Positions 5,508-64,000 of a stretch of DNA of 64,000 nt are shown here, piece by piece. The translations under genes were made by a program, and so were the position numbers. The DNA is from Gilliamella sp. ESL0405 (GTDB lineage Bacteria; Pseudomonadota; Gammaproteobacteria; Enterobacterales; Orbaceae), in NCBI RefSeq assembly GCF_019469205.1, contig NZ_CP048265.1, positions 2,356,001 to 2,420,000 on the forward strand, given 5' to 3'. The notes below the pieces were generated by a model. That model did not search any database. It was not told where the DNA came from and worked only from the letters and a program-made list of their open reading frames with translations. Every line of letters begins with the position of its first letter. Within the stretch, counting starts at the first letter, position 1.

Positions 5508-7934
5508 ATGGCTAGTGGTTTAAATAAGATCATCAATCAAGTTGGTGAGCACTTAATTAATGGACTATCGGATGCGGTTACACAAAATCGCTATACTCTC
5601 ACCATAGAAGAACTTAATTCACCGATCTCTATATTAAAGGTAAAAAGCGAAGAACAATTAAATCAACCATGGCGCTATACGATTACATTTACCAGTGCTG
5701 ATAAAACACTATCGAATGAAACTTTTTTGAACAAGAATGCCTCATTCTCATTTAATCCTGCGACTAACAATACGATTAATTCGACAATTCAATCTCTGAT
5801 CGATTTAACCTACGGTAACGATAGCAACCAACGCAAAATTTTTGGCATTATCACCGAGTTTAACCAATTATCGTTCAATAAAGATGAAGCTCACTATCAA
5901 GTTGTATTATCACCAAGATTAGCCAAACTAGCCTTAAATCACAATTACGCAATATTCCAAAATCAAAGTATTGTTAGTGTTGTCGAGGAAGTTCTTAGAA
6001 ATCATGGGTTACGAGGCATAGATTACCGGTTAGAACTTAAAGAACAATACCCAGTAAGGGAGTTTATTACCCAATGGCAAGAAAGTGATCTTGAATTTAT
6101 CCAAAGGCTAATGGCTGATGTAGGTATTTGGTTTCGTTTTGAAACGCATGCCGAACACGACTGTGATGTACTAATCATTAGCGATGATGAACAAGGCTAT
6201 GAAAAAGTAGCCGATATTGAATACCAACGACCAAGTGGAACTCAAGATAGCATGCAAGAAAGCGTATGGGATATAAGCATGCACAGTAAAATTGTTGAAT
6301 CTTCGGTGAATGTGCAAGATTACAACTACCGTAAAGCTAAAAACAATTTACAAGGTGAAAGTAATACCCAACTGAAAGACACGACCACTTATGGGACAGA
6401 TTATCGCTATGGTGAGCATTATAACGATCTCAATACAAATCAATTAGATGATGGTGAAGAAATCAGTGAGGATGACAAAACTGAAAGTGGTAACTGGTAT
6501 GCAAGTATTCGCCACCAACATGCAATCAGTCAACAAATTATTATCCACGGAAAAACAAACTGTTATCACTTAGTACCCGGGCAACTGATTTGTATTAACA
6601 ATAATCCGCTAACAAACATTGATGAAGGTATCTTAATTACCAGCGTGACAGGTAGCGGCTCTCGCAGTGATGCCTATGAACAAAGCTTTACAGCTATTCC
6701 ATATAATATTTCTAAACCTTATCGCCCAACACCACTTGATTGGCCACAAGTCGCCGGAACGCTACCGGCGCGGGTAACCAGCCCGGATAACGATACTTAT
6801 GGATATATCGATACCCAAGGGCGTTACCGAGTAAAATTCAATTTTGACCTTAAAAAATGGCGAAATGGTAAAGAAAGTTTATGGGTTAGACTGGCAAAAC
6901 CTTATGCGGGAAACACTTATGGTTTCCACTTTCCACTTATTGACGGTACAGAAGTGGCCATTGCCTTTATGAACAGCGATCCGGATAGACCATATATCGC
7001 AAACGTCATGCATAACAGTACTCATCATGACCATGTGACTACAATCAATAAACATCGCAATGTCATTCGCACCCCAACCAATAATAAATTACGCATGGAT
7101 GACAAACGGGGGCAAGAACATATCAAACTTGCCACCGAATATGGCAAGACCCAACTCAATTTGGGGCATTTAGTGGATCAGCAAAAACAACAGCGAGGAG
7201 AAGGCTTTGAACTTCGAACTGATGAATGGGGAGCAATTGCTGCCAATCGAGGATTGTATCTCACTACACAAACCGAACCCAAAGCGCAAGGTAAACAGCT
7301 TGATATGCAAGGGGCAATTACCGAATTAGAAAATGCTTTATCGATTGCTAAAGCACTACAGAACGTAGCAGCTAGTTCACAAGCACACACAGCCGACATC
7401 GCCAGCCAAACGCAGCTCAATGCCAATCTAACACAACTAAGTCTAAGTGGCATGTTAGCTTATGCACAGGAAGGTATTGCTTTAACCAGCCCAGAAAATA
7501 TTCAACTCACTACTGCCCATAGCCTAACCACCACATCGGCAAATCAAACTGATATTACTGCTTTAAAAAATATAACCCTTTCCACCCCTGAAGCTATTAG
7601 CCTTTTGGCACAAAAATCGGGGATGAAAGTATTTGCTAATCAAGGTGATATAGATGTACAAGCCCAAACCGACCAAATAGCGATAGCGGCAAAACAAGAT
7701 ATTCAAATTGATAGTGTTAACAGTCATGTCGATATTTCTGCAGCAAAAGAGATCAAGCTTATTTGCGGTGGTTCGTATATCAAAATAAGTGAAGCAGGTA
7801 TTGAGTTAGGCACCCAAGATAATATCTATCTTAAATGTAATGCGATGCAAAAAATGTCACCAGCGACTGAAACCAAAACAATTCAATTAAAATCAAGTGA
7901 TTTAGATGTTAAACGCTGTTCCGAAATGGATTAA
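5508..7934 (+). CDS. vgrG: Type VI secretion spike protein VgrG
   Basis: Trimeric tip of the T6SS needle that carries effectors into target cells. The 808 residues show the gp27-like N-terminal module (LTIEELNSPISILKVKSEEQ from residue 31), the gp5-like OB domain with the VgrG hallmark sequence (DTQGRYRVKFNFD, then FPLIDGTEVAIAFMNSDPDRP around residues 440-500), and a C-terminal DUF2345-type beta-helix repeat region ending with LICGGSYIKI. There is no extra enzymatic domain after the helix, so the cargo should be the product of the downstream genes. A good AGGAG ribosome site precedes the ATG. The T6SS structural genes are not in this window, so this is an orphan or accessory vgrG island. Confidence 0.96.
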   Translation: MASGLNKIINQVGEHLINGLSDAVTQNRYTLTIEELNSPISILKVKSEEQLNQPWRYTITFTSADKTLSNETFLNKNASFSFNPATNNTINSTIQSLIDLTYGNDSNQRKIFGIITEFNQLSFNKDEAHYQVVLSPRLAKLALNHNYAIFQNQSIVSVVEEVLRNHGLRGIDYRLELKEQYPVREFITQWQESDLEFIQRLMADVGIWFRFETHAEHDCDVLIISDDEQGYEKVADIEYQRPSGTQDSMQESVWDISMHSKIVESSVNVQDYNYRKAKNNLQGESNTQLKDTTTYGTDYRYGEHYNDLNTNQLDDGEEISEDDKTESGNWYASIRHQHAISQQIIIHGKTNCYHLVPGQLICINNNPLTNIDEGILITSVTGSGSRSDAYEQSFTAIPYNISKPYRPTPLDWPQVAGTLPARVTSPDNDTYGYIDTQGRYRVKFNFDLKKWRNGKESLWVRLAKPYAGNTYGFHFPLIDGTEVAIAFMNSDPDRPYIANVMHNSTHHDHVTTINKHRNVIRTPTNNKLRMDDKRGQEHIKLATEYGKTQLNLGHLVDQQKQQRGEGFELRTDEWGAIAANRGLYLTTQTEPKAQGKQLDMQGAITELENALSIAKALQNVAASSQAHTADIASQTQLNANLTQLSLSGMLAYAQEGIALTSPENIQLTTAHSLTTTSANQTDITALKNITLSTPEAISLLAQKSGMKVFANQGDIDVQAQTDQIAIAAKQDIQIDSVNSHVDISAAKEIKLICGGSYIKISEAGIELGTQDNIYLKCNAMQKMSPATETKTIQLKSSDLDVKRCSEMD

Positions 7935-13812: not shown

Positions 13813-14660
13813 ATGCCATCAAAATACCAACCCCAAATCCTTGGCTGGATAGGCGATTTAGATAAAGGCGGTAATTATTTAACAGGAGCCGATCAACGTT
13901 TATTGTATGCCAATGATAACTACTGTGCTTTTAGAAGACAGGTATTGTCTGATAAAATTTTTTATATATTTATCTATACAATAGCAGTAATTTTGGGAAT
14001 TGTAATAATAATCCTATGTTTAGACTTGATTATTCATTTCAATTCAGATACAGATACAGATACAGATACAGATACAGAACAAAACATATTGAATTTAGGA
14101 ATATTTATTTTTTTGCAACTTGGTTTGCACTGTATATCGTTATTCCATTATTATACCAAACGATATTTACTCACAAAGGAAGCCCCATTATTTTCAACCG
14201 TAAAACCGGTAAAGTGTATGTCAATGAAAGTTATTTTTTCAATTTTAAGGTATTACGCAATCCATTAACTTTTTTACACCCCAATAAAAAGCGTATTAAA
14301 GAATACGATTGGGCGGATTTACACGGGGTGGTTGTGCATAACTTTTCCCGATATTCCCTCAACTCCACCATTTTAATGGTTTGCAAACCTAATACCCATA
14401 AAACCATTGACCATATTATGTTAGATCCGATACGCAATGGCATTGGTAGTTATCAGGTCTGGGGTTGGGTCAATAATTTTATGTGTGCGAACGATTTAAT
14501 CAGCTTTAATGACGGCAAATATAAATGGGAACAAGAAACCCAATTCAAAAAAGAGATTATTAAAGGACAAGGTTGGCCTGAATGGATGGTTGAAGCATTC
14601 AATGCTACAACGCTAGATGAGTTAGCCGAAATCAAACGAAAATATAATATTCATGAATAA
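13813..14660 (+). pseudogene. Tandem second copy of the membrane/immunity-like protein, frameshifted
   Basis: Close paralogue of the gene at 12940. The first reading frame (13813-14268) matches the N-terminus and first membrane helix; the match then moves to the -1 frame and continues to 14660 through the C-terminal domain, which is nearly identical to copy 1. The switch lies just after a (CAGATA)5 hexamer tract (14045-14074), most likely at the T7 run at 14108-14114. In the first frame that run forms T TTT TTG, a -1 slippery heptamer. So this may be a broken gene, a phase-variable gene regulated by the T run, a programmed -1 frameshift, or a sequencing error in the homopolymer. The C-terminal 150 residues show no other damage. 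Confidence 0.8.
14045..14079 (+). repeat. Hexamer microsatellite (CAGATA)5
   Basis: Five perfect CAGATA copies plus a partial one. It encodes Asp-Thr repeats in the frame of the gene start. Because the unit is six bases, gain or loss of copies would change only the length of the loop, not the frame. It sits between the two membrane helices of the duplicated immunity-like gene and is absent from copy 1. Confidence 0.9.
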
Positions 14661-26172: not shown

Positions 26173-26505
26173 TTATAATGATTTCATTGTTCCTTTGGGT
26201 AAAACAGATGTGATAAAGTCACGTTTGATAACAACTTCAGTTGTATCGTTTAACTCTAACGCAATATAACCATTGTCATTCACTTTTGATACACGACCAA
26301 TAAGTCCACCATTGGTTAATACTTCATCACCTTTAGAAATTGATGCCATTAACTCACGATGCGCTTTAGCACGTTTTTGTTGTGGGCGCATAATCATAAA
26401 ATAGAAAAATAACCCAAACACAACAAGCATTATAGGTAAGAAATAAGGATTGTTTTCGCCTGCTGCCCCTTCAACGGCATACGCATTAGAAATAAAAAAG
26501 TCCAT
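26173..26505 (-). CDS. yajC: Preprotein translocase subunit YajC
   Basis: 110 aa with one membrane helix (residues 22-40: YFLPIMLVVFGLFFYFMIM) followed by RPQQKRAKAHRELMASISKGDEV and LTNGGLIGRV, the YajC domain pattern. Associates with SecDF. First gene of the operon; the 190-base upstream gap contains a solo 42-bp repeat at 26581-26625. Confidence 0.97.
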   Translation of the reverse strand: MDFFISNAYAVEGAAGENNPYFLPIMLVVFGLFFYFMIMRPQQKRAKAHRELMASISKGDEVLTNGGLIGRVSKVNDNGYIALELNDTTEVVIKRDFITSVLPKGTMKSL

Positions 26506-26695: not shown

Positions 26696-28603
26696 TTATG
26701 TGGTTAAATATTGAGCCATGCTAACTAAGTTAAACATCCATTTAGGATATACGCCACAAATTATGGTTAGCAGTGCTGATAAAACAATAAATAACTCACT
26801 AAATTTAATATCACGCCATGTTGATTTGCTAACGTTTTGACTGCTATTGAGATCATCACGTCCTACTGGTCTGATATATAAGTTGATAATAAGTCGGGCA
26901 TAAAAATATAAGCCTAATGTACTACCAAGAACAATAGCGGCATTTAACCACCATAATTCTGCGGTCACACCTAACATTAATAGTAGAAAACGACCAATAA
27001 ACCCTGCGGTAAGCGGCACGCCAGCTAAAGACAATAACCCCACGCCCATAGCAAGTGCAAGAATTGGGCGGCGCCAGAATAAGCCGGAAAGATCTATTTC
27101 GTTTTCGTGATCTTGGAGTTCATCAGAATGTGATTCCAAACTAATCACACCCAATACACAAATGTTAGCTAAAATATATCCAATTAAATAAACGCCAATG
27201 GTTTCTAATGCCAACACTTGATATTGCACTGCAATTAATGCAACGAGTAAATAACCAAAATGGGCAATCGATGAGTAAGCCAATAAGCGTTTTAAGCTAG
27301 TTTGCATTAAGGCAAATAAGTTACCCCATAAGATTGAGCAAAATGCCATACAAACTAAGATAATACGGATCGTTTCATTATTCACAATCGGCGCCAACAA
27401 AAATAGTCTGGCAATGGCACAAAATACTGCCACTTTTCCAACGGTTGATAATAGCAACGCAACTACGGTTGGCGCACCTTGGTAAACATCAGGTAACCAT
27501 AGTTGAAAAGGAACTAAAGAGAGTTTAAATCCAATACCGACCAACATCAAACACACGCCCATGAGTAATAATGTACTTGGATAAGACATTGTTGAGAGTT
27601 GATAACTTAAACCACTAAAAGTTAGCTCACCGGTTGTAGCATAATAAAAAGCAATCCCCATGATTAAAAATGCACTGGCTATCGATGATAAAATCATATA
27701 TTTAACCGCCGCTTCTAACGAGTGCGTCTGAGAATATTGATAACCGATTAAACCAACAAACGGTATTGAAAGCAGTTCAATACCAATAAAAAAGGCGATT
27801 AAATGACTGGCGTAGACTAATGTCACTCCGCCTAATGCCATGAAAAGTAAAATGACATAAAATACCCCATGATGAATTTTCTCATGAATAAACCAGCGAT
27901 AAGCTAAGCAAGCAACCACAATAGCAACAATTAAAATCAAGCTACTATATAGCAATCCATATCCGTCACTGGTAAAAAGTGCAGTAATTTGGCGGGCTTT
28001 CCATCCGTCATCTGAATCATCTGCCGCCGATTGCTCCTGCGTTGATGTGGCTTGTGCCGGATTGTTGCTATCTTGAATATTTTCTTGAGTGCTTTCTTGG
28101 GTATTATTTTGAGTACTCTCTTGAGTATTGTCTTGATTGTTATTTTGATTAGCAACGTCATTAGCATTTTGGTTGCTATTTCCGTTACCGTTTACATCAC
28201 TATTTTCATTAGTATTGGTTTCATTAGTATTTGTTTCATTGGTATTCGTTTGGTTAGCATCACTTTCCTCAGTACTGCTATTTTCACCATTATCTGACGG
28301 TTGGTTGGCGTCCTCAGTAGAGTCAGCATCAACGGCAATTGTCTCTTCGCTTGACGGTTGCTGATCTTGAGCTGGTGCAGGCGGTGCAACCGATAATTGC
28401 ATGTTATCATTACTAATATCAGTAATGGCTTGAGTATTGAACGAAATTTTATAGCCGATGATTGACGAACAAAGCAGCGCACAGCTAAGCGCTAACACCG
28501 TTAAAATTGTACATAATTTGGTGCCAATCTTGAAATAAAAGAGAGCAATGAGCAAAACAATGATGGCAAAGCTTAATACAAATATTGGCGATAAAGCTAT
28601 CAT
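26696..28603 (-). CDS. nuoN: NADH-quinone oxidoreductase subunit N-like antiporter protein with a large low-complexity insert
   Basis: Antiporter-like membrane subunit of complex I. At 635 aa it is about 150 longer than E. coli NuoN because of an Asn/Thr/Gln/Ser/Glu-rich stretch at residues 61-205 (repeats such as NETNT and TQEST), inserted in the loop between helices 2 and 3, which probably faces the periplasm. The rest is conserved: FFIGIELLSIPF with the channel Glu, LEAAVKYMIL, GFKLSLVPFQLW with Lys (but the usual His is Gln), LSTVGKVAVF with Lys, YSSIAHFGYL with His, and GFIGRF, where Arg replaces Lys. It is the best preserved subunit of this cluster, and the last gene in the order nuoJKLMN. 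Confidence 0.93.
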   Translation of the reverse strand: MIALSPIFVLSFAIIVLLIALFYFKIGTKLCTILTVLALSCALLCSSIIGYKISFNTQAITDISNDNMQLSVAPPAPAQDQQPSSEETIAVDADSTEDANQPSDNGENSSTEESDANQTNTNETNTNETNTNENSDVNGNGNSNQNANDVANQNNNQDNTQESTQNNTQESTQENIQDSNNPAQATSTQEQSAADDSDDGWKARQITALFTSDGYGLLYSSLILIVAIVVACLAYRWFIHEKIHHGVFYVILLFMALGGVTLVYASHLIAFFIGIELLSIPFVGLIGYQYSQTHSLEAAVKYMILSSIASAFLIMGIAFYYATTGELTFSGLSYQLSTMSYPSTLLLMGVCLMLVGIGFKLSLVPFQLWLPDVYQGAPTVVALLLSTVGKVAVFCAIARLFLLAPIVNNETIRIILVCMAFCSILWGNLFALMQTSLKRLLAYSSIAHFGYLLVALIAVQYQVLALETIGVYLIGYILANICVLGVISLESHSDELQDHENEIDLSGLFWRRPILALAMGVGLLSLAGVPLTAGFIGRFLLLMLGVTAELWWLNAAIVLGSTLGLYFYARLIINLYIRPVGRDDLNSSQNVSKSTWRDIKFSELFIVLSALLTIICGVYPKWMFNLVSMAQYLTT

Positions 28604-28609
28604 AAGTTA

Positions 28610-30154
28610 TTACTCTCCTACTCGTTCTGATGTTATATACTGCTGGGTTTGATTGACAATAGAATAAGACATATCTAACACCACTTGCGGATATAAACCA
28701 ATAAAAATAAGCACTAACAACACACTCGATAACAATAAAATATCAATTTTACTGAGCAGATGTTTAGTTACCCCAGCTTTATCCACAACGCCATAAAATA
28801 TCGGTTGCATACGGATAATAAACGAAATAGACAGTAATAATAAGCCAATCACTAACATAATAGTATAGTAAGAAAATGATGAAGAACTGCCTAATAACAT
28901 CATATAATTACCAATAAAATTGGCAGTACCGGGGATGCCTAACACCGCCAAAATAAAAAATAGCGTAAATGATGATAGATATTGCACCTGTTCTTTTAAA
29001 CCGGTGAACTGATTGATGTTTCTTGTCGAATAACATTCAGCTAATAAACCACTGACCATAAACATGCCTACGATAGCAAGATTAATGGCTATCATTTGAA
29101 TCACCACACCTTGATAAGCAACGACCGAGCCACTGTAAATAATTGCGGTAACAAAACTCATTAAGGCAATATGAATATAAGCAATGAGTTTTTTAATATC
29201 TGTTTGATTAAAGGCGAGTAAAGCGGCATAAACAACAGTAAAGAGCGCTAAAGCCAATATAAATGGCATAATGACCAGCGTTGCATTTGGGAACAGTGGC
29301 ACCACAAAGCGTAATAATCCAAATGTTGCGGTATTAAGTAGTAAACCGCTAATCATCATCGAACCGGTGGTTGATGATTCAATATGCGCATCAATAAGCC
29401 AGCTATGGAATGGCACAAATGGGATTCGTACGATAAAGGCCGCTAAAAAACCTAGCATAATTAAAAATTCGGTATGGCTCGAAATGGGTGTTTTAGTCAG
29501 TATTTGATAATCAAAAGTCCAATGCCCGGTCAAATTCCAGTTAATTAAAGCTAATGACACAATCGAGATTAACATCATTAAACTACTTACTTGGGTATAA
29601 ATTAAAAATTTACTGGCACCATTAAAGCGTAATTGTGAACTTGAATCCCGTCGACCCCATAAAGAGATGATAAAGTAAATCGGAATGGCAACCGCTTCCC
29701 AGAAAAAGAACATTAAAAACAGATCGGTAATGACAAACAACATCATAACCGCTGACGCCATAAATAACAGGCATAGATAAAATAAACCACTGTTAGTCAG
29801 GTTTTCTTTACAAGAATAAACAATAGTGAGCAAAACGATGAATAGCGAGGAGGTAATAACAATCATCGATAAACCGTCTAACACTAAATGGAAATGAATG
29901 CCCAATAATGGGATCCATTCAAGATTGACTTCCTCAGCCCAACTAGCGCCTTGCTCAATAGTATTTATCGCATGTGACCATAAAGTAATTGCCAATATTA
30001 AAGTTATTAATATGGTAGTGAAAGCAACCATCATAGGCAATTTTTGCCAACGTACTTGTAGCTGGTTAGTGTTGACAGTTCTTTGCAAAAACATATGGCA
30101 TAACCAGCCAACAAATCCGCCTAATACCGGTAAAAAAACAAGCCATAACAACAT
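28610..30154 (-). CDS. nuoM: NADH-quinone oxidoreductase subunit M-like antiporter protein, key residues substituted
   Basis: 514 aa and alignable without gaps to E. coli NuoM (509 aa) over most of its length. The first-half channel Glu is present (FFFWEAVAIP). The central Lys is Arg (FIVRIPFVPFHSW), the Lys of the next helix is Asn (LLLNTATFGLLRF), the conserved His is Ile (MIAINLAIVG), and the C-terminal Glu is Asn (ANFIGNYMML). These positions are required for proton pumping in E. coli as I recall the mutagenesis. The protein is intact with 14 likely helices, so it is either a degenerate or a re-purposed subunit. Seven bases separate it from nuoN. Confidence 0.92.
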   Translation of the reverse strand: MLLWLVFLPVLGGFVGWLCHMFLQRTVNTNQLQVRWQKLPMMVAFTTILITLILAITLWSHAINTIEQGASWAEEVNLEWIPLLGIHFHLVLDGLSMIVITSSLFIVLLTIVYSCKENLTNSGLFYLCLLFMASAVMMLFVITDLFLMFFFWEAVAIPIYFIISLWGRRDSSSQLRFNGASKFLIYTQVSSLMMLISIVSLALINWNLTGHWTFDYQILTKTPISSHTEFLIMLGFLAAFIVRIPFVPFHSWLIDAHIESSTTGSMMISGLLLNTATFGLLRFVVPLFPNATLVIMPFILALALFTVVYAALLAFNQTDIKKLIAYIHIALMSFVTAIIYSGSVVAYQGVVIQMIAINLAIVGMFMVSGLLAECYSTRNINQFTGLKEQVQYLSSFTLFFILAVLGIPGTANFIGNYMMLLGSSSSFSYYTIMLVIGLLLLSISFIIRMQPIFYGVVDKAGVTKHLLSKIDILLLSSVLLVLIFIGLYPQVVLDMSYSIVNQTQQYITSERVGE

Positions 30155-30171
30155 GAAAGTTCACACCTTTA

Positions 30172-32019
30172 TCAAATAAAAATCAGTAACATTAAAATCA
30201 TAATGCTACCTATGACAATTGACACCATATACCATCTAATATGCCCATTTTCTAAGCTGACAATATATGCATTTATTTTTTTAATTCCCAACATGATCCA
30301 ATTGTCCCATATGGCTAATGGATCAAGTTTTAACAAGTTAGCTAAATAGATATAAGGTTTAACAAATAGCGTGTGTAATAAATAGTCAAAGTGCCAATCG
30401 CTTTTACATAATCTGCCAAAGAATTTAACCATTGGCGTATTAAGCACTTCCTGCACTTCACTATTAGGATGCGCATAAAAGAAGTAAGCGATCACAAAAC
30501 TCAATAACGTTACAGCGGCGAGTAACAACTGGAATGTTATTCGACCTTTTGTGTCAATATCGGCAATAGGAATAATGCCTTGAATCGGAAATGGAAAATA
30601 GATAAATAGCGCTGTAGGAAATATCAGTAAGATAAAAATAGGCAAATAATATATCCAGCTAGTTTTGGTTAACTTGCGATGTTTAGATTTATGGTAAAAC
30701 ACCATAAAAATTAAGCGCCAAATACAAAGACTAGACAATAAGATACCAATCAGACCAATCGTACCGGACATTAGGCTATCTTGCGCCATAAGTCCCCAAA
30801 TAATATCCCCTTTGATATAAAATGACGCTGACACCCATGGCATGGCACTTAACGACAGCATAATTAACAAAAATACAACAAATAAGGTTGGGTTAGTCTT
30901 GTGTAGACCACCTAATTTAGTGATATCACGCTCACCTTGACAATTTCGAATTAAAATTGCTGAGGCAAGTATTAACAGCGTGCTGGTAACAGCATAGTTG
31001 ATTAAGCAGTTAAGTGATAAGTCCCAGCTTTTGGTTGAAAATGCATAGAACAGGTAACTTATCTGAGCCAGATTAATATAAGTCACGATTCGTTTGATAT
31101 CATTTTGTACCAACGCTATTGAGCTGGCAAATAACACCGTGAGGGAAGATATCAACATCATGATAGAAAGCGTATCAGATGACATCATAAACAAGTTACT
31201 TAATCTTAAAACCAGATAAACGCCAGCAAAAATAACGGTAGAACATTGCATTAAAGCAATTGCCGGCATTGGTGCAAGTGTGGTTTGGGCAAACCATGAA
31301 TGCATAGGGAAAAGGGCTGATTTACTCATCGCACCCAAAAATAGCATAAAGGTTATCCAAAAAATGATATCAGAATCAATAGCTAAATTTTCGTGCGCTT
31401 GGGTTAAAATATCATGAATATTTAAAGTTTCGACAGTCTGATAAAGTAAAAAGATACCAATGATCAAAAAGATATCCGTTAAATGCATCATCACAAATGC
31501 TTTAACCGCCGCATAACCGTTTCGAGCTTGTTGGTAATAGATCCCAATTAGCAAGTAAGTACTTATGCTCACCCCTTCCCAACCGAGTAACATAACAAAT
31601 AGATTATCCACCAGTACCACAGTTAAAATACTTGCAATTAATAAGTTACTGTAGGCATAGAAGGTATAGATATCTTGTCTTGATTTTAGATAACAAGCGG
31701 CAAAAAAGTAGATTAATATGCCAAAAAAAGAGGTTAAAACTAAAAAGATTAACGATAACCCATCTAAAGTTAATGAGAGAGGCACAACAAAATCACCGAC
31801 CGAAAACCACGTCCATAAAGATCGGGTATAGACTAAGGTCATATCCGGCACTGTATTGGAATTAAAATCAATACATGAAAAAACGGTAATTAATGCTATA
31901 AGCAACATGGTACTGTTACCAAAAATAATAACATCAATTGAACGAATATGCCTTCCCATAAAAACCAGAATTAAGAAAGATATTAAGGGAATAATGATTG
32001 CTAAATAAAGTAAATTCAT
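30172..32019 (-). CDS. nuoL: NADH-quinone oxidoreductase subunit L-like antiporter protein, key residues substituted
   Basis: 615 aa, the length of E. coli NuoL, including the long lateral helix at the C-terminus. The channel Glu (LLGWEGVSIS) and central Lys (SKSALFPMHSW) are kept. The conserved His of helix 8 is Gln (ALMQCSTVIF). In helix 10 the block with two His and one Lys is replaced (NCLINYAVTSTLLI, aligning gaplessly to the E. coli segment). The terminal Lys is kept but the neighbouring Asp is Gly (FYIKGDII). The start overlaps the nuoK stop by four bases. A complete gene, but half of the proton path appears disabled. Confidence 0.93.
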   Translation of the reverse strand: MNLLYLAIIIPLISFLILVFMGRHIRSIDVIIFGNSTMLLIALITVFSCIDFNSNTVPDMTLVYTRSLWTWFSVGDFVVPLSLTLDGLSLIFLVLTSFFGILIYFFAACYLKSRQDIYTFYAYSNLLIASILTVVLVDNLFVMLLGWEGVSISTYLLIGIYYQQARNGYAAVKAFVMMHLTDIFLIIGIFLLYQTVETLNIHDILTQAHENLAIDSDIIFWITFMLFLGAMSKSALFPMHSWFAQTTLAPMPAIALMQCSTVIFAGVYLVLRLSNLFMMSSDTLSIMMLISSLTVLFASSIALVQNDIKRIVTYINLAQISYLFYAFSTKSWDLSLNCLINYAVTSTLLILASAILIRNCQGERDITKLGGLHKTNPTLFVVFLLIMLSLSAMPWVSASFYIKGDIIWGLMAQDSLMSGTIGLIGILLSSLCIWRLIFMVFYHKSKHRKLTKTSWIYYLPIFILLIFPTALFIYFPFPIQGIIPIADIDTKGRITFQLLLAAVTLLSFVIAYFFYAHPNSEVQEVLNTPMVKFFGRLCKSDWHFDYLLHTLFVKPYIYLANLLKLDPLAIWDNWIMLGIKKINAYIVSLENGHIRWYMVSIVIGSIMILMLLIFI

Positions 32020-32318
32020 CCTTTCATTTCACTCAGTGAGTCAATATTAGAGATTTTGCGACGGTAAATTAATTTCATAAGTAGAGCAAGACCAACGCAA
32101 GCTTGAGCAATAACAGTTATTACAGCTAATAAAGCGAGCACTCGCCCGTCTGATTGTTGCCATGAACTACTTGCAGCAAATAAGGCAACGATTACGCCAT
32201 TATTCATAATCATCAGGCTGAGTAATAAAAAATATAAATTACGTCGAATCATCACGCCTAACAGTCCGATCACAAATAAAATAGACGCAAGAATAAGACA
32301 ATGCATAAGTGGTATCAT
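32016..32318 (-). CDS. nuoK: NADH-quinone oxidoreductase subunit K-like protein lacking both conserved Glu
   Basis: The start is the ATG at 32318, preceded by GGAG and one base after the nuoJ stop. It gives exactly 100 aa like E. coli NuoK; the open frame to 32360 overlaps nuoJ and is not needed. Three helices and the C-terminal NIDSLSEMKG match the family. The two membrane Glu residues that are nearly universal (positions 36 and 72) are Met (LSLMIMNNG) and Gln (VIAQACVGLA); I checked both codons (ATG at 32213-32211, CAA at 32105-32103). In E. coli loss of both abolishes coupled activity. Confidence 0.93.
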   Translation of the reverse strand: MIPLMHCLILASILFVIGLLGVMIRRNLYFLLLSLMIMNNGVIVALFAASSSWQQSDGRVLALLAVITVIAQACVGLALLMKLIYRRKISNIDSLSEMKG

Positions 32319-32319
32319 A

Positions 32320-32811
32320 TTATTTCTCCAACAAAAGTCGATGCATAAAATGATAAGCAATTATACCGGCACCTAATAACAGAAAAATAGCTAATTCGAC
32401 CATTAAAATGTAAGCATATACTGACATTTCATGCATCAATTCGTGCGATTCTCGAAGTTGAGAATAGTCAGTGCTTACAACACCATAAATGAGTATAACC
32501 AGTAAAATAAACGCTAAAATGAGTGGACCTAACCAAATTTTAGGGCTAATACCACGCTGACCATTTTCGACATTATCAACCTTAATTTTAAGGAGACTTG
32601 CAACCGACATAAACAGCACGATTGCACCACCAATAAAAAAGATCATATATAAAATAGCCGAAAGATAGATTTTAAGCAGAATAAATATCGATGCTGTAGC
32701 AAAAAGTGAAATAGCTAGGTACAAAATAGCTTTATCAACACGTAAGCAAATAATCACTTTCATACTGGCAATAACAGCAATAATTGACGCAATATAAAAA
32801 ATAGCGTTCAT
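32320..32811 (-). CDS. nuoJ: NADH-quinone oxidoreductase subunit J-like protein
   Basis: 163 aa (E. coli 184), five likely helices. It aligns to NuoJ through AILYLAISLFATASIF and the LYMIFFIGGAIVLF helix. In that helix the conserved Glu is Tyr and the Tyr of the IVYAGA motif is Phe. The C-terminal extension of E. coli NuoJ is absent. It is the first gene of this minus-strand cluster: nothing resembling nuoI or any other peripheral-arm subunit lies between it and the divergent ppc, so nuoA-I are missing from this locus. Confidence 0.88.
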   Translation of the reverse strand: MNAIFYIASIIAVIASMKVIICLRVDKAILYLAISLFATASIFILLKIYLSAILYMIFFIGGAIVLFMSVASLLKIKVDNVENGQRGISPKIWLGPLILAFILLVILIYGVVSTDYSQLRESHELMHEMSVYAYILMVELAIFLLLGAGIIAYHFMHRLLLEK

Positions 32812-33160
32812 TTAATAACCCAATATACATTCACAATTCCCTTAGTATATACCCAAATGCTTATAAGATACAGTTTACTGACAATCTGTTCATGGAAAAA
32901 CAGACATAAAATGAACAAAAAGGTAAAAAAAACGAAATTATTAGCAGGGTTTGATTAGCTTAACATGGGTATCAACTATAATAAAAACAGTAAAATTAAT
33001 AAAGTCCATAAAATTTTATTATTTAAATTCAACGAAACATTGTTATAAAGTATATAACCTGAGCATATTAACTCATATTTAAACCTAATTCTTTAAATTG
33101 TCATTTTGGTCATACAGCTTAAAGGCGCTTAGGCAAAATATACATAAAAACGAGAATAGA
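32812..33160. promoter_or_regulatory. Divergent promoter region nuoJ/ppc
   Basis: About 350 AT-rich bases between the nuoJ start and the ppc start at 33161. It should contain the promoters for both directions. No ORF of the complex I peripheral arm, even fragmentary, is visible. I could not assign clear boxes. Confidence 0.5.
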
Positions 33161-35803
33161 ATGAATAGTAAATACTCATCAATGCGAAGCAACGTCAACA
33201 TGTTAGGCACATTATTGGGTGATGCAATTAAACGTGCCACCGGTAATCAGACATTTGATTTAGTTGAACAAATAAGACAACTATCTAAATCAGCTCAACA
33301 AGGAAATAAGCAAGCGCATAGCGAATTGCTTAAATTAATTGAGAATCTTAATGATCATGATTTACTGCATGTTGCACGGGCATTCAATCAGTTCTTAAAT
33401 TTGGTTAATACTGCTGCCGAATATTATGGCATTTCACCGCATGGGGAAGCATCGAGCAGTCCTAAAAAAATGACAGAGTTGTTTAATTCGCTCAAAAACT
33501 TAAATTTTTCCAATGAAACCATAACGCAAGCAATTAACGATCTGTCTATTGAATTGGTATTAACCGCTCATCCAACTGAAATTAATCGCCGCACTATGAT
33601 TAATACTTACACGGCGATTAACAGCTGTTTATCACAACTGGATCATAATGATTTAGCCGATTATGAAGTTGAACGCATTATGCGTCGATTAAAACAGTTA
33701 GTTTGCCAAGCATGGTATACCGATGAAATTCGCAAAAAACGCCCAACGCCGCTAGATGAAGCAAAATGGGGATTTTCCGTTATCGAAGACAGTTTATGGG
33801 AAGGTGTGCCACTGTTTTTACGGGAATTTAATGACCAGCTGGTTGATGCCTTTAATCAAGAATTATCGGTTGAACATGTACCTATCAAATTTACGTCATG
33901 GATGGGGGGCGACCGGGACGGTAACCCGAATGTTACGGCTAATGTGACCGAAAGAGTCATGTTACAAGCCAGATTAAAGGCGATCGAACTATTTTTAGCT
34001 GATATCCAAATACTAGTGCGTGAATTATCCATGACTGAATGTAGCCAATCGGTGATTGATCTATTAGATGAACCGAATAAATCAGCCTCAGAACCTTATC
34101 GCATGGTGATGAAGCAACTACGTTCACGCTTAGTAAAAACCCATAGTTATATTGTTTCATTATTAAATAATGAACAAGTCTTAGCTCCCCATGATATCTT
34201 GCTTAAAAATGAACAACTATGGACACCGCTTTATACCTGTTATCAGTCATTGATTGAAAACGGAATGTCAACCATTGCGCATGGTCCACTGCTTGATACG
34301 CTACGCCGTATTAAAAGTTTTGGTCTTCAATTGGTAAGATTAGATATTCGTCAAGATAGCTCAGTGCACACAGAAGCACTCGATGCATTAACCAAAGAGC
34401 TGAATTTAGGCAGCTATGCGCAGTGGTCGGAAGATGAAAAGCAGGCATTTTTATTAACCGAATTGCAATCCAATCGCCCACTACTTCCATACAACTGGCA
34501 ACCTGATGAAATGGTGCAAGAAGTATTAGATACTTGTCGGGTAATTAAAAAAGCAGGCGAAGAATCGATTGCATCTTACGTCATCTCAATGGCCAAAGCA
34601 CCTTCAGATATTTTAGCGGTCTACCTGTTATTAAAGATAGTTGACTGCCAAAAAAATATCCCTGTTGCCCCGCTATTTGAAACCCTTGAAGATCTAAACA
34701 ATGCCAAATCTGTCATGCAAAAGCTGTTAGATATTCCTTGGTATCGCCAACAGATCAAAGGTAAACAAATGGTCATGATCGGCTATTCTGATTCCGCCAA
34801 AGATGCCGGCTCACTGGCTGCCTCCTGGGCACAATATCGCTCACAAGAAGAGCTGGTCAATTTGTTTGAAAAATACCATGTCAACTTAGTACTATTTCAC
34901 GGGCGAGGTGGTTCAATTGGTCGAGGTGGCGCACCAGCGCACGCCGCCTTACTTTCTCAACCACCGGGATCGTTAAAAGGTGGACTTCGAGTTACAGAAC
35001 AAGGCGAGATGATCCGTTTTAAACTTGGTTTACCGGAAGTGGCGTTAAGTAGCTTAATGCTCTACGCTTCAGCAATATTACAAGCCAACTTATTGCCACC
35101 ACCTCAGCCAAAACAAGCATGGCGAGATATTATGGATGAAATGTCCGACGTTTCCTGCCAATGTTACCGAAGCTACGTTCGTGAACGTGCTGAATTTGTT
35201 GACTACTTTCGCGCGGTCACGCCTGAAGCAGAATTAGGCAGATTACCATTAGGTTCAAGGCCACAAAAACGGCGAACTGGCGGTGGTATTGAAAGCTTGC
35301 GCGCCATTCCTTGGATTTTCGCATGGACACAAAACCGCCTAATGGTACCTTCATGGCTCGGTGCGGGTAGTGCGTTAAGATTAGTGATTAATGCCGGTAA
35401 AAAAGATCTGCTACAAGATATGTATCACAACTGGCCATTTTTTAATGCCCGATTAGGGATGCTGGAAATGGTATACGCCAAAGCCGCACCAAATATTCAT
35501 GAATATTATGAACAAAGGCTTGTCGACCCTATCTTATGGCCGTTAGGCGAAGAATTACGGACTTTATTAACCGAAGATATCAACACCGTATTAACTATTA
35601 CTGATGATATTAGTTTAATGGCAGATTTGCCATGGATTGCCGAATCAGTCGCTTTACGCAATATCTATATTGAGCCGCTGAATTTATTACAAGCGGAGCT
35701 ATTGAATCGTTCACGCAAACATAGTGATGAAAATAGTGTTGTAGAGCAAGGGTTGATGATAACGATATCGGGTATTGCCGCAGGTATGCGTAATTCCGGA
35801 TAA
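33161..35803 (+). CDS. ppc: Phosphoenolpyruvate carboxylase
   Basis: Converts PEP and bicarbonate to oxaloacetate, replenishing the TCA branch encoded at 60019-64000. The start at 33161 ([20 protein letters not shown]) matches the E. coli N-terminus and gives 880 aa (E. coli 883); the frame is open from 33098 but adds 21 unmatched residues. Catalytic motifs are intact: [15 protein letters not shown] (His near 140), [14 protein letters not shown], the [12 protein letters not shown] loop and the C-terminal AGMRNSG. A bidirectional terminator follows. Confidence 0.98.
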
Positions 35804-60018: not shown

Positions 60019-61374
60019 TTAACGATCTTCAAGAGGAATAAATGGTTTAAGCTGACCGATGTTTTTATAGGCAGGTCGAATAATTCGGCGGTCATCAAAA
60101 TTGAGCTCTTCAATTCGATGTGCACACCAACCGACAATTCGGGACATGGCAAATAACGGGGTGTAGACCTCTTTCGGTAAGCCAATCATGTCATAGACAA
60201 ATCCGGAATAAAAGTCGACATTAGCGCAGACCTGTTTTTTGGTTCGGGCGTTTTTTCGATTAACAATGGCATTAATGGCACGTTGTTCAAGCAAGTTTAA
60301 AAAATCATACTCTTTTACTCGTCCCTTCTCTTTAGCCAGTTCGTACGCCATTTCTTTAAGTAACATGGCTCGAGGATCGGATACGGTGTAAACCGCATGT
60401 CCAATGCCATAAATCAGCCCTTTTTGGTCGAACACTTCTTTATTTAAGATGCGTTTTAAGTAGTTATCAATTTCGGTAACATCAGTCCAATCTTGGATCT
60501 GTTGTGCGAGGTGTTTGAGCATTTTACCGACTTGCAAATTTGCCCCACCATGCAAGGGTCCTTTTAACGAGCCGATACCGGCAGCAATTGAGGAATAAGT
60601 ATCGGTGCCGGTTGAACTGGTCACCCGTACGGTAAAGGTTGAGTTATTCCCGCCACCATGTTCGGCATGAATAATCAAGGCGAGATCTAATACTTTCACA
60701 TCAAGTTGCGTATAACCTCCGGAGCCTTTCATCATATATAAAAAATTTTCAGCGATAGAAAAATCTTCATGCGGGTGGCGAATATGTAATGATTTGCCTT
60801 TGGCGCTATGGCTTAACATGTTATAGGCATAAGCAATGATCGCCGGAAATTTGGCAATTAAGTCAATTGATTGGCGCATTAAATTGTCTCGAGAAGTGTC
60901 ATCTGCCTGTGGGTCATGGGTGTACATTTCCAGCACGGTTCTTGCTAAGATGTTCATCACATCGTGACCTTCGAGCTGCATAATGGCAATTTTGGTCTGT
61001 TTTTCCAGCGCCATTGATTCACAAAGTAATCGGGAAAAGTCACGCAGTTCTTCCGCATCCGGTAAATAGCCGGATAAAAGCAGATAAATGGTCTCTTCGA
61101 AGCCTGTTCGCTGCTCTTTTTGAGCATTATGTACCAGATCGTCAATATTAATCCCACGATACAATAATTTTCCGTCAATCGGTTTTAATACACCATTATC
61201 TAACCGCTCATAGCCTAGCACGTCGCCGATTTTAGTTAATCCAACCAGTACACCTGTGTGATCAGCATTACGTAAACCACGTTTGACATTGAATTTTTCG
61301 AATAGCTGGGACTCAATTTTGCTGGTGTTTTTAATGGTTTCAGATAATTTATAAACCAAAAACTTCTCTTTCAT
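60019..61374 (-). CDS. gltA: Citrate synthase, Bacteroides/Clostridium type
   Basis: Condenses acetyl-CoA and oxaloacetate. I take the ATG at 61374 (MKEKFLVYKLSETIKNTSKI), preceded by GGGCGG and 20 bases after the icd stop; the open frame to a TTG at 61407 overlaps icd. 451 aa. The protein follows the longer anaerobe-type citrate synthase I know from Clostridium and Bacteroides, not the 427-aa hexameric E. coli type: NVKRGLRNADHTGVLVGLT, ILDALIIHAEHGG-type catalytic His (LALIIHAEHGGGNNSTFT), GPLHGGANLQVGKM, GIGHAVYTVSDPRA. Last gene of acn-icd-gltA. Confidence 0.93.
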   Translation of the reverse strand: MKEKFLVYKLSETIKNTSKIESQLFEKFNVKRGLRNADHTGVLVGLTKIGDVLGYERLDNGVLKPIDGKLLYRGINIDDLVHNAQKEQRTGFEETIYLLLSGYLPDAEELRDFSRLLCESMALEKQTKIAIMQLEGHDVMNILARTVLEMYTHDPQADDTSRDNLMRQSIDLIAKFPAIIAYAYNMLSHSAKGKSLHIRHPHEDFSIAENFLYMMKGSGGYTQLDVKVLDLALIIHAEHGGGNNSTFTVRVTSSTGTDTYSSIAAGIGSLKGPLHGGANLQVGKMLKHLAQQIQDWTDVTEIDNYLKRILNKEVFDQKGLIYGIGHAVYTVSDPRAMLLKEMAYELAKEKGRVKEYDFLNLLEQRAINAIVNRKNARTKKQVCANVDFYSGFVYDMIGLPKEVYTPLFAMSRIVGWCAHRIEELNFDDRRIIRPAYKNIGQLKPFIPLEDR

Positions 61375-61393
61375 TTTGTTTACCGCCCTTGTT

Positions 61394-62656
61394 TTATAAG
61401 TTATCAATTACCGCTTGGGTAAATTGACTTGTGGATAAGGGTTGCCCATTTTGCATAAAGCGGGCTAAGTCTGTTGTGGCTTTTCCTTGTTGAAATAGTT
61501 TTTCCATAGCTTGAGTAATCAGTTGCCCTACTTCATACCAACCTAGATAATCAAACATCATCACGCCCGATAATAACAGCGAGGATGGATTGGCTTGATT
61601 TTGCCCGGCAATATCCGGTGCTGTGCCGTGCGTTGCTTCGAAAATCGCATGTCCGGTCAGATAGTTAATGTTTGCCCCCGGTGCAATGCCAATGCCACCA
61701 ACTTGAGCGGCAAGTTGATCGGAGATGTAATCACCATTAAGATTTAAGGTAGCCACAACGCTGTAATCTTGTGGCTTAAGCAGCGTATTTTGTAAAAAGG
61801 CATCACAAATCACATCTTTTATAATCAGTTTGCCGGATGATTTGGCCGCTTGTAAGGCTTCATCGGCAAGAGCTTGACCATTAGCTTTGGCCATTTTGGC
61901 ATATTGATTCATGGTAAATACCTCATTGGCAAACTCGCTTTCGGCTAAGGCATATCCCCATTGTTTAAATCCACCTTCGGTAAATTTCATAATGTTGCCT
62001 TTATGCACTAATGTGACTGACGGTAATTGATGTTGTAAGGCGTATTTTATCGCTGCACGAATTAATCGCTGCGATCCCTCAATCGATACTGGTTTAACCC
62101 CAAATGATGAGGTTTTCGGAAATCGCACTTTGTTAACGCCCATTTGCGTCGATAAAAATTGATAGAATTTTTCGGCTTCGGGGGTGCCTTGTTGCCATTC
62201 GATGCCCGCATAAATATCTTCGGTGTTTTCCCGAAAAATGGTCATATTGACCTTTTCCGGATGTTTAATCGGTGATTCTACCCCTTTAAACCAGCGCACA
62301 GGTCGTAAACAGACATACAGATCTAATTCTTGCCGTAATGCCACATTAAGTGAACGAATTCCTTCACCAACCGGTGTCATTAATGGACCTTTGATCCCGA
62401 TAAGATAGTGTTTAAAGGCATTAATAGTCTCTTGCGGAAGCCAGCTACCGGTGAGGTTGTAAGCTTTTTCGCCCGCCAGCACTTCGCACCATTGTACGCT
62501 TTTCTCGCCGTGATAAGCTTTTTTAACGGCAGTATCAAATATCGTTTTGGCCGCTGCCCATATCTCTTTGCCCACGCCGTCACCCTCAATAAAAGGAATG
62601 GTCGGATGATTTGGTACGATTAACTGTCCATTTTCAATTAAAACTTGCTGTTTCAT
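61394..62656 (-). CDS. icd: NADP-dependent isocitrate dehydrogenase
   Basis: Oxidises isocitrate to 2-oxoglutarate. 420 aa. Key features: [36 protein letters not shown] with the Ser that is phosphorylated in E. coli, [35 protein letters not shown] and [12 protein letters not shown]. It sits between acn and gltA with about 20 bases on each side, so the three are one operon. No aceK is seen. Confidence 0.96.
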
Positions 62657-62676
62657 CGGGTTTCTCCCTGTTATGT

Positions 62677-64000
62677 TTAATTGTGGTTAATTTGGGCTTT
62701 TAGCTTATTTAGGGCACTGCCTGCTTTATACCACTCAATTTGTGCTTGATTATAGGTATGCGCAACGGCAAAACTGTCAGTGGTGCCGTCTTGGTGGTGA
62801 AGCGTTAAGGTTAGATTTTTGCCCGGCGCAAAATCAATTAAGCCGGTAATACTGATTTGGTCATCTTGCCGAATTTTGTCGTAGTCATTTTTATCAACAA
62901 AGGTCAACGCTAACATGCCTTGCTTTTTAAGGTTGGTTTCATGAATGCGAGCAAATGATTTAACCACAATGGCTTTTACATTTAAAAAACGAGGCTCCAT
63001 AGCAGCGTGCTCACGTGAGGATCCTTCGCCGTAGTTTTCTTCGGCAACAACAATCGAGCCTAAACCTTGGGCTTTCAATTTTCGGGCTAAGGCCGGAACA
63101 GGCATATACTCGCCGGTTTGTGCATCTAATACACAATTGGTTTTTTGATTAAAGGCATTAACGGCGCCAATTAGCATATTGTTAGCAATGTTATCTAAGT
63201 GCCCTCGGAATTTAAGCCATTGACCAGCCATTGAAATATGATCTGTTGTGCATTTGCCGGCGACTTTAATTAACAGCGGTTGCGATACAATATCTTGTCC
63301 GTCCCAGGGTAAAAAAGGCGCTAATTGTTGTAACCGCTCTGAATTTGGGGCGATATGAATGGTAATGTGACTACCGTCAGCTAGCGGCTCAATATAGCCG
63401 GCATCATCAACGGCAAATCCCTGTTTGGGTAGTTCATCCCCAAAAGGCTCCGGCAGTTTTACTTGTTGTCCTTGTTGATTAACAAGGCTGTCAGTGAGTG
63501 GATTGAAGCTTAACTTGCCGGCAATGGATAATGCCACCACAATTTCCGGTGAACAGACAAAAGCATAGGTATTTGGGCTACCGTCATTACGTTTGGCAAA
63601 ATTACGATTGAATGACGTAACAATGGCATTTTTATGTTCATCTGCCACATCATCACGTCGCCACTGACCGATACAAGGACCACAAGCATTTGCCATAACT
63701 GCCGCCCCGGCTTGCTCAAAACGCTGTAAAATGCCGTCTCGTTGTGAGGTATATTTTACTTGCTCTGAACCGGGATTGATGATCAATTTCGCTTGCACTT
63801 TAAGCCCTAATTGATTAGCACTATCAAGCACTGATGCCGCCCGCATCATATCTTCATACGATGAGTTAGTACATGAGCCAATCAAGCCAACTTCCATGTT
63901 ATCGGGATAATTGTGCTCAGCCACAGCAGCGGCTAAGGTTGAGATTGGATAGGCCAGATCGGGGGTAAATGGACCATTAACATAAGGCTCGAGTTCGGAC
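62677..64000 (-). CDS. acn: Aconitate hydratase, mitochondrial type (partial, 3' part)
   Basis: The gene runs off the right edge; the frame continues beyond the internal GTG at 63924 through [17 protein letters not shown]. The visible 441 residues match mitochondrial aconitase rather than E. coli AcnA or Acn[19 protein letters not shown] with the first cluster Cys, [16 protein letters not shown] with the other two Cys, [38 protein letters not shown] with the substrate-binding Arg, and [14 protein letters not shown] at the end. Such an enzyme in an acn-icd-gltA order is known to me from Bacteroides. Confidence 0.94.

What the first reader, a model, noticed from the sequence alone, without database searches (positions are those of the whole stretch)
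26696..32811. A nuoJKLMN module without nuoA-I and with proton-channel residues replaced
The cluster starts at nuoJ; the 287 bases upstream hold no nuoI, and ppc diverges. Four of the five subunits lost residues considered essential for proton transfer: NuoK Glu36 to Met and Glu72 to Gln, NuoJ membrane Glu to Tyr, NuoL helix-8 His to Gln and the helix-10 His/His/Lys block to Cys/Tyr/Ser, NuoM Lys to Arg, Lys to Asn, His to Ile and Glu to Asn. All five reading frames are nevertheless intact with correct lengths, and the first-half Glu (and Lys or Arg) of L, M and N remain. That looks like an ancient module kept under selection for something other than normal complex I pumping, e.g. a reduced ion carrier or a non-coupled complex.
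Basis: partly seen in the sequence, partly recalled or inferred. Interest (0 to 1): 0.8.

Follow-up and report, generated by a model that had tools for sequence, protein, structure and literature searches.

The report
Orphan complex I membrane arm
A family of insect-gut bacteria has kept only part of the proton-pumping membrane half of the respiratory enzyme complex I, rewired inside and without the redox half, and selection still preserves it, so it probably does a different ion-transport job.

Summary
The cluster is real: nuoJKLMN (window 32811-26696, minus strand), five intact frames. The genome (2.81 Mb, Orbaceae, Gilliamella-type) has no match to NuoA, D, F or H models. NuoL occurs in 42 of 44 Orbaceae genomes searched and 39 of 39 good-quality ones; all five genes are full length in the 42. 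Median dN/dS is 0.08-0.16, like enterobacterial nuo genes. Descent looks vertical from an E. coli-type complex I. The replacements are family-wide: NuoM K265, H322, E407 and NuoK E36 are gone in 42 of 42 and NuoL's TM7-TM12 region is remodelled, while NuoN keeps its channel residues, one Lys as Arg. One claim fails: the NuoJ Glu was never conserved. The gene set is already published for Gilliamella and Orbaceae but judged a remnant (PMC11325843); the selection data contradict that. Best reading, not proven: a redox-free, NuoN-based membrane transporter, resembling Mrp without being Mrp. What it carries is unknown.

The parts
32320..32811 (-). nuoJ, 163 aa; Y59F, keeps E142
   Evidence: Pfam PF00499 1.7e-10; residues
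32016..32318 (-). nuoK, 100 aa (the listed ORF starts upstream at 32360; start chosen at 32318 by likeness to E. coli NuoK); E36M, E72Q
   Evidence: Pfam PF00420 4e-17, two NCBIfam NuoK models over cut-off
30172..32019 (-). nuoL, 615 aa, aligns along residues 1-613 to E. coli NuoL 1-610; keeps E144, D178, K229, K399; lost H254, H334, H338, K342, D400
28610..30154 (-). nuoM, 514 aa; keeps E144, K173, H241; K234R; lost K265, H322, E407; new His three residues from H322
   Evidence: NCBIfam TIGR01972 over cut-off
26696..28603 (-). nuoN, 635 aa; keeps E133, K158, K217, K247; K395R; H224Q
   Evidence: NCBIfam TIGR01770 over cut-off
27965..28474 (-). enlarged acidic low-complexity loop of NuoN (residues 44-213, aligned to E. 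coli 50-70, between TM2 and TM3; predicted periplasmic)
   Evidence: loop lengths; hydropathy and charge of loops; coordinates
26173..26505 (-). yajC, first gene of yajC-secD-secF downstream on the same strand; directly downstream of nuoN in 39 of 42 clusters
33098..35803 (+). ppc, divergent neighbour (start codon uncertain); a ppc hit lies in 34 of 42 fetched stretches

Best explanation
[quoted passage not shown] Shown: nuoJKLMN is kept as one five-gene unit throughout the Orbaceae sampled, under purifying selection, without the redox and connecting subunits tested; it branches with E. coli-type complex I; NuoN keeps its channel residues (TM12 Lys as Arg), while the NuoM relay, the middle of the NuoL channel and the NuoK axis residue were replaced family-wide. 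Inferred: the lineage lost the rest of the complex before the family diversified; the five proteins still assemble; with no redox driver the module can only spend, not make, proton motive force; protons would cross through NuoN, and J, K, L and M would serve as scaffold and perhaps as the path of another ion, i.e. a reduced, Mrp-like H+-coupled transporter. The substrate is unknown.
For: Absence of NuoD (own genome), NuoH (absent in 39 of 44, own included), NuoF and NuoA (0 of 44 each). NuoL in 42 of 44 and 39 of 39 good genomes; all five ORFs full length in 42 of 42 clusters. Median dN/dS J .159, K .081, L .099, M .078, N .096 (Orbaceae pairs with dS 0.3-1.0), against 0.02-0.18 in the first six of ten E. 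coli-like pairs printed per gene. Neutral simulation leaves on average 18-84 in-frame stops. NuoKLMN and SecDF protein distances correlate r = 0.983 over 38 genomes; Orbaceae monophyletic, with the E. coli-type complexes. NuoN E133, K158, K217, K247 42 of 42, Arg for K395 41 of 42. Some new residues are themselves fixed (NuoM R234, L322, N407; NuoL Y338; NuoJ F59: 42 of 42). NuoM H322 (36 of 36 canonical) is lost with a new His at 319 (41 of 42); R442 (34 of 36, otherwise Lys) is lost with a new Arg at 439 (42 of 42). NuoL lost more conserved positions than NuoN (39 of 105 against 4 of 41, Fisher p 0.001) and mostly in residues 232-405 (30 of 60 against 3 of 28 in 120-231, p 0.0003). Isolated Nqo12 and Nqo13 conduct protons, and K235M or E377Q in Nqo13 blocks this (PMC11496545, one results section read); by role these are the NuoM positions lost here, an equivalence I did not align. 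MrpC also lacks the two NuoK glutamates (PMC7419157, passages).
Against: No transport, assembly or expression evidence. For NuoM the excess of losses over NuoN (15 of 70 against 4 of 41, p 0.19) and between its halves (p 0.14) is not significant, and charged losses in K, L and M together against N are not either (10 of 30 against 1 of 8, p 0.39). MrpA/MrpD of Mrp keep key lysines on TM7, TM8 and TM12 (PMC7419157 passages), unlike NuoL and NuoM here. An open NuoN channel without a driver could be a harmful leak unless gated or coupled. The MrpC histidines are not in the window's NuoK.
Confidence: 0.42

Rival explanations
1. Remnant of genome reduction: a non-functional leftover of complex I that has not yet been deleted (the published view for Gilliamella).
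For: Stated in PMC11325843 (passages). Mean identity to E. coli is only 32-55%, and across the deepest Orbaceae split nuo proteins have changed 1.4 to 2.9 times as much as SecD; frdCD is another orphan of the same kind.
Against: 42 of 42 clusters intact over five genera, dN/dS near 0.1, neutral simulation gives tens of stops, several replaced residues fixed family-wide.
Confidence: 0.06
2. The module still serves a redox enzyme: another electron donor or quinone-binding part (e.g. the orphan FrdCD anchor, or NDH-2) docks to it, giving a non-coupled or differently coupled complex.
For: FrdC is kept in 43 of 44 genomes and 39 of 39 good ones, and frdC and frdD ORFs are intact in 20 of 20 loci examined, mostly without frdAB beside them.
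Against: NuoH, the coupling subunit, is absent in the own genome; NuoK E36 is gone in 42 of 42; no further gene sits inside the five-gene unit in the 12 loci laid out, though yajC-secDF follows in 9 of these 12; no match to PF03116 (NqrB/RnfD) or PF01512 in 44 genomes.
Confidence: 0.2
3. Regulated proton conductance (uncoupling valve): NuoN as a gated leak that lets NDH-2 and cytochrome bd respiration run fast (both enzymes reported for Gilliamella in PMC11325843, passages).
For: NuoN alone keeps the full set of channel residues; isolated antiporter-like subunits Nqo12 and Nqo13 conduct protons (PMC11496545).
Against: Does not explain why L and M are kept under similar constraint, nor the fixed new residues in them.
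Confidence: 0.14
4. A structural or sensory membrane assembly with no transport, for example linked to the neighbouring YajC-SecDF or acting through the long NuoN loop.
For: yajC follows nuoN directly in 39 of 42 clusters; the NuoN loop is a family-wide novelty.
Against: The linkage is broken in three of 42 clusters (L047, L071, L072) without loss of the module; NuoN channel residues would not need to be kept.
Confidence: 0.14

Closest known systems
P-module (membrane arm) of E. coli-type respiratory complex I, NuoJKLMN
   Same: Five homologous subunits in the same order, branching with the E. coli-type complexes, NuoN channel residues, first half-channel Glu of L (39 of 42), M and N (42 of 42), full-length NuoL
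   Different: No match for NuoA, D, F, H in the own genome; NuoK E36, NuoL H254/H334/H338/K342/D400 and NuoM K265/H322/E407 replaced; enlarged NuoN loop
Mrp cation/proton antiporter
   Same: Redox-free assembly of homologous subunits (MrpA-N ~ NuoL, MrpD ~ NuoN and NuoM, MrpC ~ NuoK, MrpA-C ~ NuoJ, per PMC7419157 passages); MrpC too lacks the NuoK glutamates
   Different: NuoJ and NuoL not fused, an additional NuoM, no MrpC His pair, no other antiporter-like subunit found in the genome with NuoL as query; descent with complex I
DAB / MpsAB inorganic-carbon systems (NuoL-like DabB with DabA)
   Same: A complex I antiporter-type subunit used without electron transfer (PMC13144422, abstract and one section read)
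   Different: DabA (PF10070) absent in 44 of 44 Orbaceae genomes
nuoJKLMN of Gilliamella and other Orbaceae as listed in PMC11325843
   Same: The same genes; presence in all 95 Gilliamella genomes reported there
   Different: Judged likely remnants there; residues, selection, descent and the NuoN loop are not in the passages I saw

Membership tests
Respiratory complex I (NDH-1) | NADH-oxidising module (NuoF) | tested here: not met
   PF01512 0 of 44 Orbaceae genomes; 9 of 14 control genomes ring
Respiratory complex I (NDH-1) | Quinone/connecting subunits (NuoD, NuoH, NuoA) | tested here: not met
   Own genome: PF00346 0 (own only), PF00146 0 (5 of 44 relatives have one), PF00507 0 of 44. NuoB, C, E, G, I not searched.
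Respiratory complex I (NDH-1) | P-module subunits J-N homologous to complex I | tested here: met
Respiratory complex I (NDH-1) | Central-axis residues in K, L, M | tested here: not met
   NuoK E36, NuoM K265/H322/E407, NuoL H334/H338/K342: 0 of 42 Orbaceae, invariant in 35 of 35 canonical genomes plus E. coli. NuoK E72 is kept in 25 of 42; NuoL E144, K229, K399 and NuoM E144 are largely kept.
Respiratory complex I (NDH-1) | Central-axis residues in N | tested here: met
   E133, K158, K217, K247 42 of 42; K395 as Arg 41 of 42
Mrp antiporter | MrpA (NuoL-like fused to NuoJ-like) and MrpD | tested here: not met
   J and L are separate genes; own genome has three antiporter-like subunits with NuoL as query, all Nuo
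Mrp antiporter | MrpC His37/His40 | tested here: not met
   Window NuoK has Met36 and no His in the stretch shown; the His pair is from PMC7419157 (passages)
Mrp antiporter | MrpB, E, F, G | not tested
   No model search run in the genome
Mrp antiporter | Cation/proton antiport activity | not testable with these tools
   Needs a transport assay
DAB / MpsAB | DabA partner (PF10070) | tested here: not met
   0 of 44; control rings in Bacillus subtilis and Haloferax volcanii
Group 4 hydrogenase / formate hydrogenlyase | NuoD-like large subunit | tested here: not met
   PF00346 0 in own genome. Five relatives have a NuoH-like gene beside other antiporter-like ORFs, probably Hyf-type, not followed up.
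Pseudogene / genomic remnant | Frame damage or near-neutral dN/dS | tested here: not met

The most novel reading that the evidence does not exclude
Complex I run backwards in evolution: a family of gut symbionts turned part of the pump's membrane arm into an independent, redox-free H+-coupled transporter in which NuoN is the only working proton channel, NuoL and NuoM have been rebuilt for another ion or solute, and an acidic periplasmic loop on NuoN is part of the new mechanism.
Probability: 0.3. Interest if true: 0.88.

Novelty: new variant of a known kind. Interest (0 to 1): 0.62.

Why it matters
[quoted passage not shown] Here is a natural experiment: membrane-arm subunits kept across a bacterial family without any of the redox or connecting subunits tested in this genome, in which NuoM and NuoL have lost defined relay residues and NuoN has not. 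It makes the roles of the three antiporter-like subunits separately testable and argues against a published reading of these genes as remnants in bee gut symbionts.

Tried and rejected
Decaying duplicate of a complete operon: rejected. DabA-type partner: rejected. Na+-NQR or Rnf: PF03116 0 of 44; that RnfC would also match PF01512 (0 of 44) is recalled. A sixth gene inside the operon: none in the 12 of 42 loci laid out. Horizontal origin: the tree and the r = 0.983 distance correlation speak for vertical descent. Selective loss of charged residues: not supported; among columns conserved in at least 35 of 36 canonical sequences the lost fractions, charged and uncharged, were NuoL 4 of 13 and 35 of 92, NuoM 5 of 14 and 10 of 56, NuoN 1 of 8 and 3 of 33, NuoK 1 of 3 and 2 of 10, NuoJ 0 of 0 and 5 of 14 (Fisher p 0.76, 0.16, 1.0, 1.0 and none). 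That NuoM as a whole is remodelled beyond NuoN is not significant by counts; the case for NuoM rests on its named residues. A burst of change on the family's stem: not seen; the ratio of E. coli-Orbaceae to deepest-Orbaceae distance is 1.46-1.62 for nuo and 1.48-1.96 for yajC, secD, secF, though nuo is faster throughout. Other gammaproteobacteria with a strong NuoM hit and no listed NuoH (lists were capped, so not exhaustive): by ORF layout G068 has Mrp-like clusters and G094 a NuoM beside a very long ORF, probably DAB-type (not confirmed by a model); G171's hit lies at its contig's end and G217's contig has 7,999 bases. Promoter and terminator scans gave no excess over shuffles (21 against 29.7; 5 against 5.4). 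A wider dN/dS comparison with 16 E. coli-type genomes gave higher canonical medians, 0.14-0.25; I prefer the closer pairs because dS saturates. Structure prediction of NuoN could not be run. Limits: dN/dS is Nei-Gojobori between species, one genome per species; columns with over 20% gaps (the NuoN loop) were left out; yajC, secD and secF had 40, 38 and 38 of 42 rows. The sole call that looked like a NuoD search of relatives was not made: NuoD was searched in the own genome only.
Full report
What is there. The minus strand of window 26696-32811 holds nuoJ, nuoK, nuoL, nuoM and nuoN in canonical order, each an intact frame and each matching its Pfam family. The window lies in a single-contig genome of 2.81 Mb, 99.97% complete. 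Named records that encode relatives of its NuoN are Gilliamella species, Orbus hercynius, Zophobihabitans entericus, Frischella japonica, Candidatus Schmidhempelia bombi and Orbaceae ESL0721 and ESL0727 (30 of the 32 loci; the other two are an Omnitrophota and a Bacteroidetes MAG).

No complex I elsewhere. In the own genome there is no match to NuoD, NuoH, NuoF or NuoA, and with NuoL as query the only three antiporter-like subunits are L, M and N of this cluster. Over 44 Orbaceae genomes NuoF and NuoA are absent from all; NuoH is found in 5 of 44, each beside further antiporter-like ORFs, probably a hydrogenase-4 type cluster. NuoD was searched in the own genome only; NuoB, C, E, G and I were not searched.

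Retention. NuoL is present in 42 of 44 genomes, in 39 of 39 that are at least 90% complete and at most 5% contaminated, in five of five genera; the two misses are 59% and 74% complete. I fetched the cluster from the 41 relatives with it; with the window that makes 42, and all five genes are full-length ORFs in all 42. Neighbours change: yajC follows nuoN directly in 39 of 42 (not in L047, L071, L072), and a ppc hit lies in 34 of 42 stretches, with other genes in its place in several of the 12 loci laid out. So the five genes are the constant unit.

Selection. Pairwise dN/dS medians for Orbaceae pairs with dS 0.3-1.0 are J .159, K .081, L .099, M .078, N .096, against 0.02 to 0.18 in the first six of ten E. 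coli-like pairs printed per gene. A first pass (dS 0.2-1.5) gave J .147, K .095, L .095, M .096, N .102, with yajC .100, secD .063, secF .044 as controls. Without selection the five genes would carry on average 18, 34 or 84 in-frame stops at 0.05, 0.1 or 0.3 substitutions per site (200 simulations each).

Descent. In a tree of NuoK-L-M-N (78 sequences, 1657 columns) the Orbaceae are monophyletic and fall with the E. coli-type complexes (clade of 59 with support 1.0; the Orbaceae node itself was printed with low support, 0.184, on a stem of 0.65). Their protein distances follow those of SecDF with r = 0.983 over 38 genomes.

The channel residues. The comparison set is E. coli, 16 E. coli-type genomes of the same order (all non-Orbaceae hits) and 19 other gammaproteobacteria that I picked from the list. 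In NuoN, E133, K158, K217 and K247 are kept in 42 of 42, K395 is Arg in 41 and H224 is Gln in 42. In NuoM, E144 is kept in 42, K234 is Arg in 42, and K265, H322 and E407 are gone in 42. K265-H322-E407 is a relay proposed for E. coli NuoM (PMC9271201, passages). In NuoL, E144 (39), D178 (42), K229 (40) and K399 (41) are kept; H334, H338, K342 and D400 are gone in 42, H254 in 39. In NuoK, E36 is gone in 42 and E72 is kept in 25. Of these positions all but H224 of NuoN and D400 of NuoL are invariant in the comparison set, including two genomes of about 0.3 Mb, presumably symbionts, whose proteins are about as far from E. coli as those of Orbaceae (L115, L116).

Remodelling, not decay. Of the positions conserved in the comparison set, NuoL lost 3 of 28 in E. 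coli residues 120-231 and 30 of 60 in 232-405, about TM7 to TM12 (p 0.0003); NuoM 1 of 16 and 10 of 38 (p 0.14); NuoN 2 of 14 and 2 of 23 (p 0.62). In all, NuoL lost 39 of 105, NuoM 15 of 70, NuoN 4 of 41 (L against N p 0.001, M against N p 0.19). Several replacements are themselves fixed: NuoM R234, L322, N407, NuoL Y338, NuoJ F59 (42 of 42 each). In NuoM a His appears three residues from the lost H322 (41 of 42; Ser in 36 of 36 canonical), and an Arg three residues from the lost R442 (42 of 42).

A new part. The stretch of NuoN aligned to E. coli residues 50-70 is 20-23 residues in 36 of 36 comparison sequences and 80-228 (median 113) in 42 of 42 Orbaceae; it is rich in Ser, Thr, Asn, Asp and Glu and poor in Lys and Arg. 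Hydropathy and the charge of the loops in the window's NuoN place it between TM2 and TM3, probably on the periplasmic side; this is a prediction, not a structure.

Mechanism. Shown: selection, descent, absence of the redox and connecting subunits tested, and which residues remain. Inferred: assembly, proton passage through NuoN, and a second role for L and M. Published work shows that isolated antiporter-like subunits conduct protons and that changing the middle Lys or the terminal Glu of the NuoM counterpart stops this (PMC11496545, section 7 read), so NuoM here is predicted not to conduct. Mrp gives the precedent of a redox-free assembly of the same subunit types whose NuoK counterpart has no such glutamates (PMC7419157, passages). 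The Orbaceae module is not an Mrp by the features tested, and not DAB, because DabA is absent in 44 of 44.

What is known. PMC11325843 (passages) reports nuoJKLMN in all 95 Gilliamella genomes studied and as conserved across Orbaceae and suggests that they may only be remnants of genome reduction, citing two 2014 papers that are not held (not read). A 2025 survey has a class of species with incomplete complex I; the words Gilliamella and Orbus do not occur in its main text (PMC12361115, passages). The rows listed by my searches on Gilliamella or Orbaceae with complex I, fitness or proteome terms and on orphan or partial membrane arms showed no paper that proposes a function; most of these lists were cut to the top 8-20, and only open-licence papers are held.

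A parallel. FrdC, a membrane anchor of fumarate reductase, is kept in 43 of 44 genomes and 39 of 39 good ones. In 20 of these 43 that I examined, frdC and frdD are intact in all 20, but near full-length frdA and frdB lie beside them in only two (G038, G043), with frdB fragments in two more (G039, G040) (stretches of 4.5-7.5 kb). dN/dS in 11 genomes of the window's genus is 0.27 for frdC and 0.16 for frdD. PMC11325843 also notes the orphan frdCD. Two respiratory enzymes in one family have thus lost catalytic parts and kept membrane parts in most members.

Verdict. The function is open; my best guess is an H+-coupled membrane transporter.

Noticed in passing
G000:C1:2353143-2353430 (about 2.6 kb left of window base 1); L131-L150: Orphan frdCD: the fumarate reductase membrane anchor kept, without frdAB beside it in most loci seen; ORFs intact in 20 of 20 loci examined, with frdB fragments still visible in G039 and G040, which suggests repeated loss of the catalytic half.
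   Followed up: partly
window 27965-28474 (NuoN residues 44-213): Family-wide, length-variable acidic low-complexity loop in NuoN with recurring short flanks.
   Followed up: yes
window 13813-14660: Second of two tandem similar genes downstream of a VgrG-like gene (5508-7934) appears as two overlapping frames at a repeat coding Asp-Thr; names from reading the translations.
   Followed up: no
window 60019-63924: Citrate synthase, isocitrate dehydrogenase and aconitase-like genes in a row (read from translations), a partial TCA branch of the kind reported for 62 of 95 Gilliamella genomes in PMC11325843.
   Followed up: no
L119 and L120 (G068): Two Mrp-like clusters, one with a 950-residue ORF that may be DabA, in a gammaproteobacterium without NuoH (by ORF layout only).
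   Followed up: partly
L078 / L178 (Candidatus Schmidhempelia bombi, identified by equal contig length): nuoJKLMN is intact here, although PMC11325843 in one passage speaks of a lack of nuo genes in this organism.
   Followed up: no
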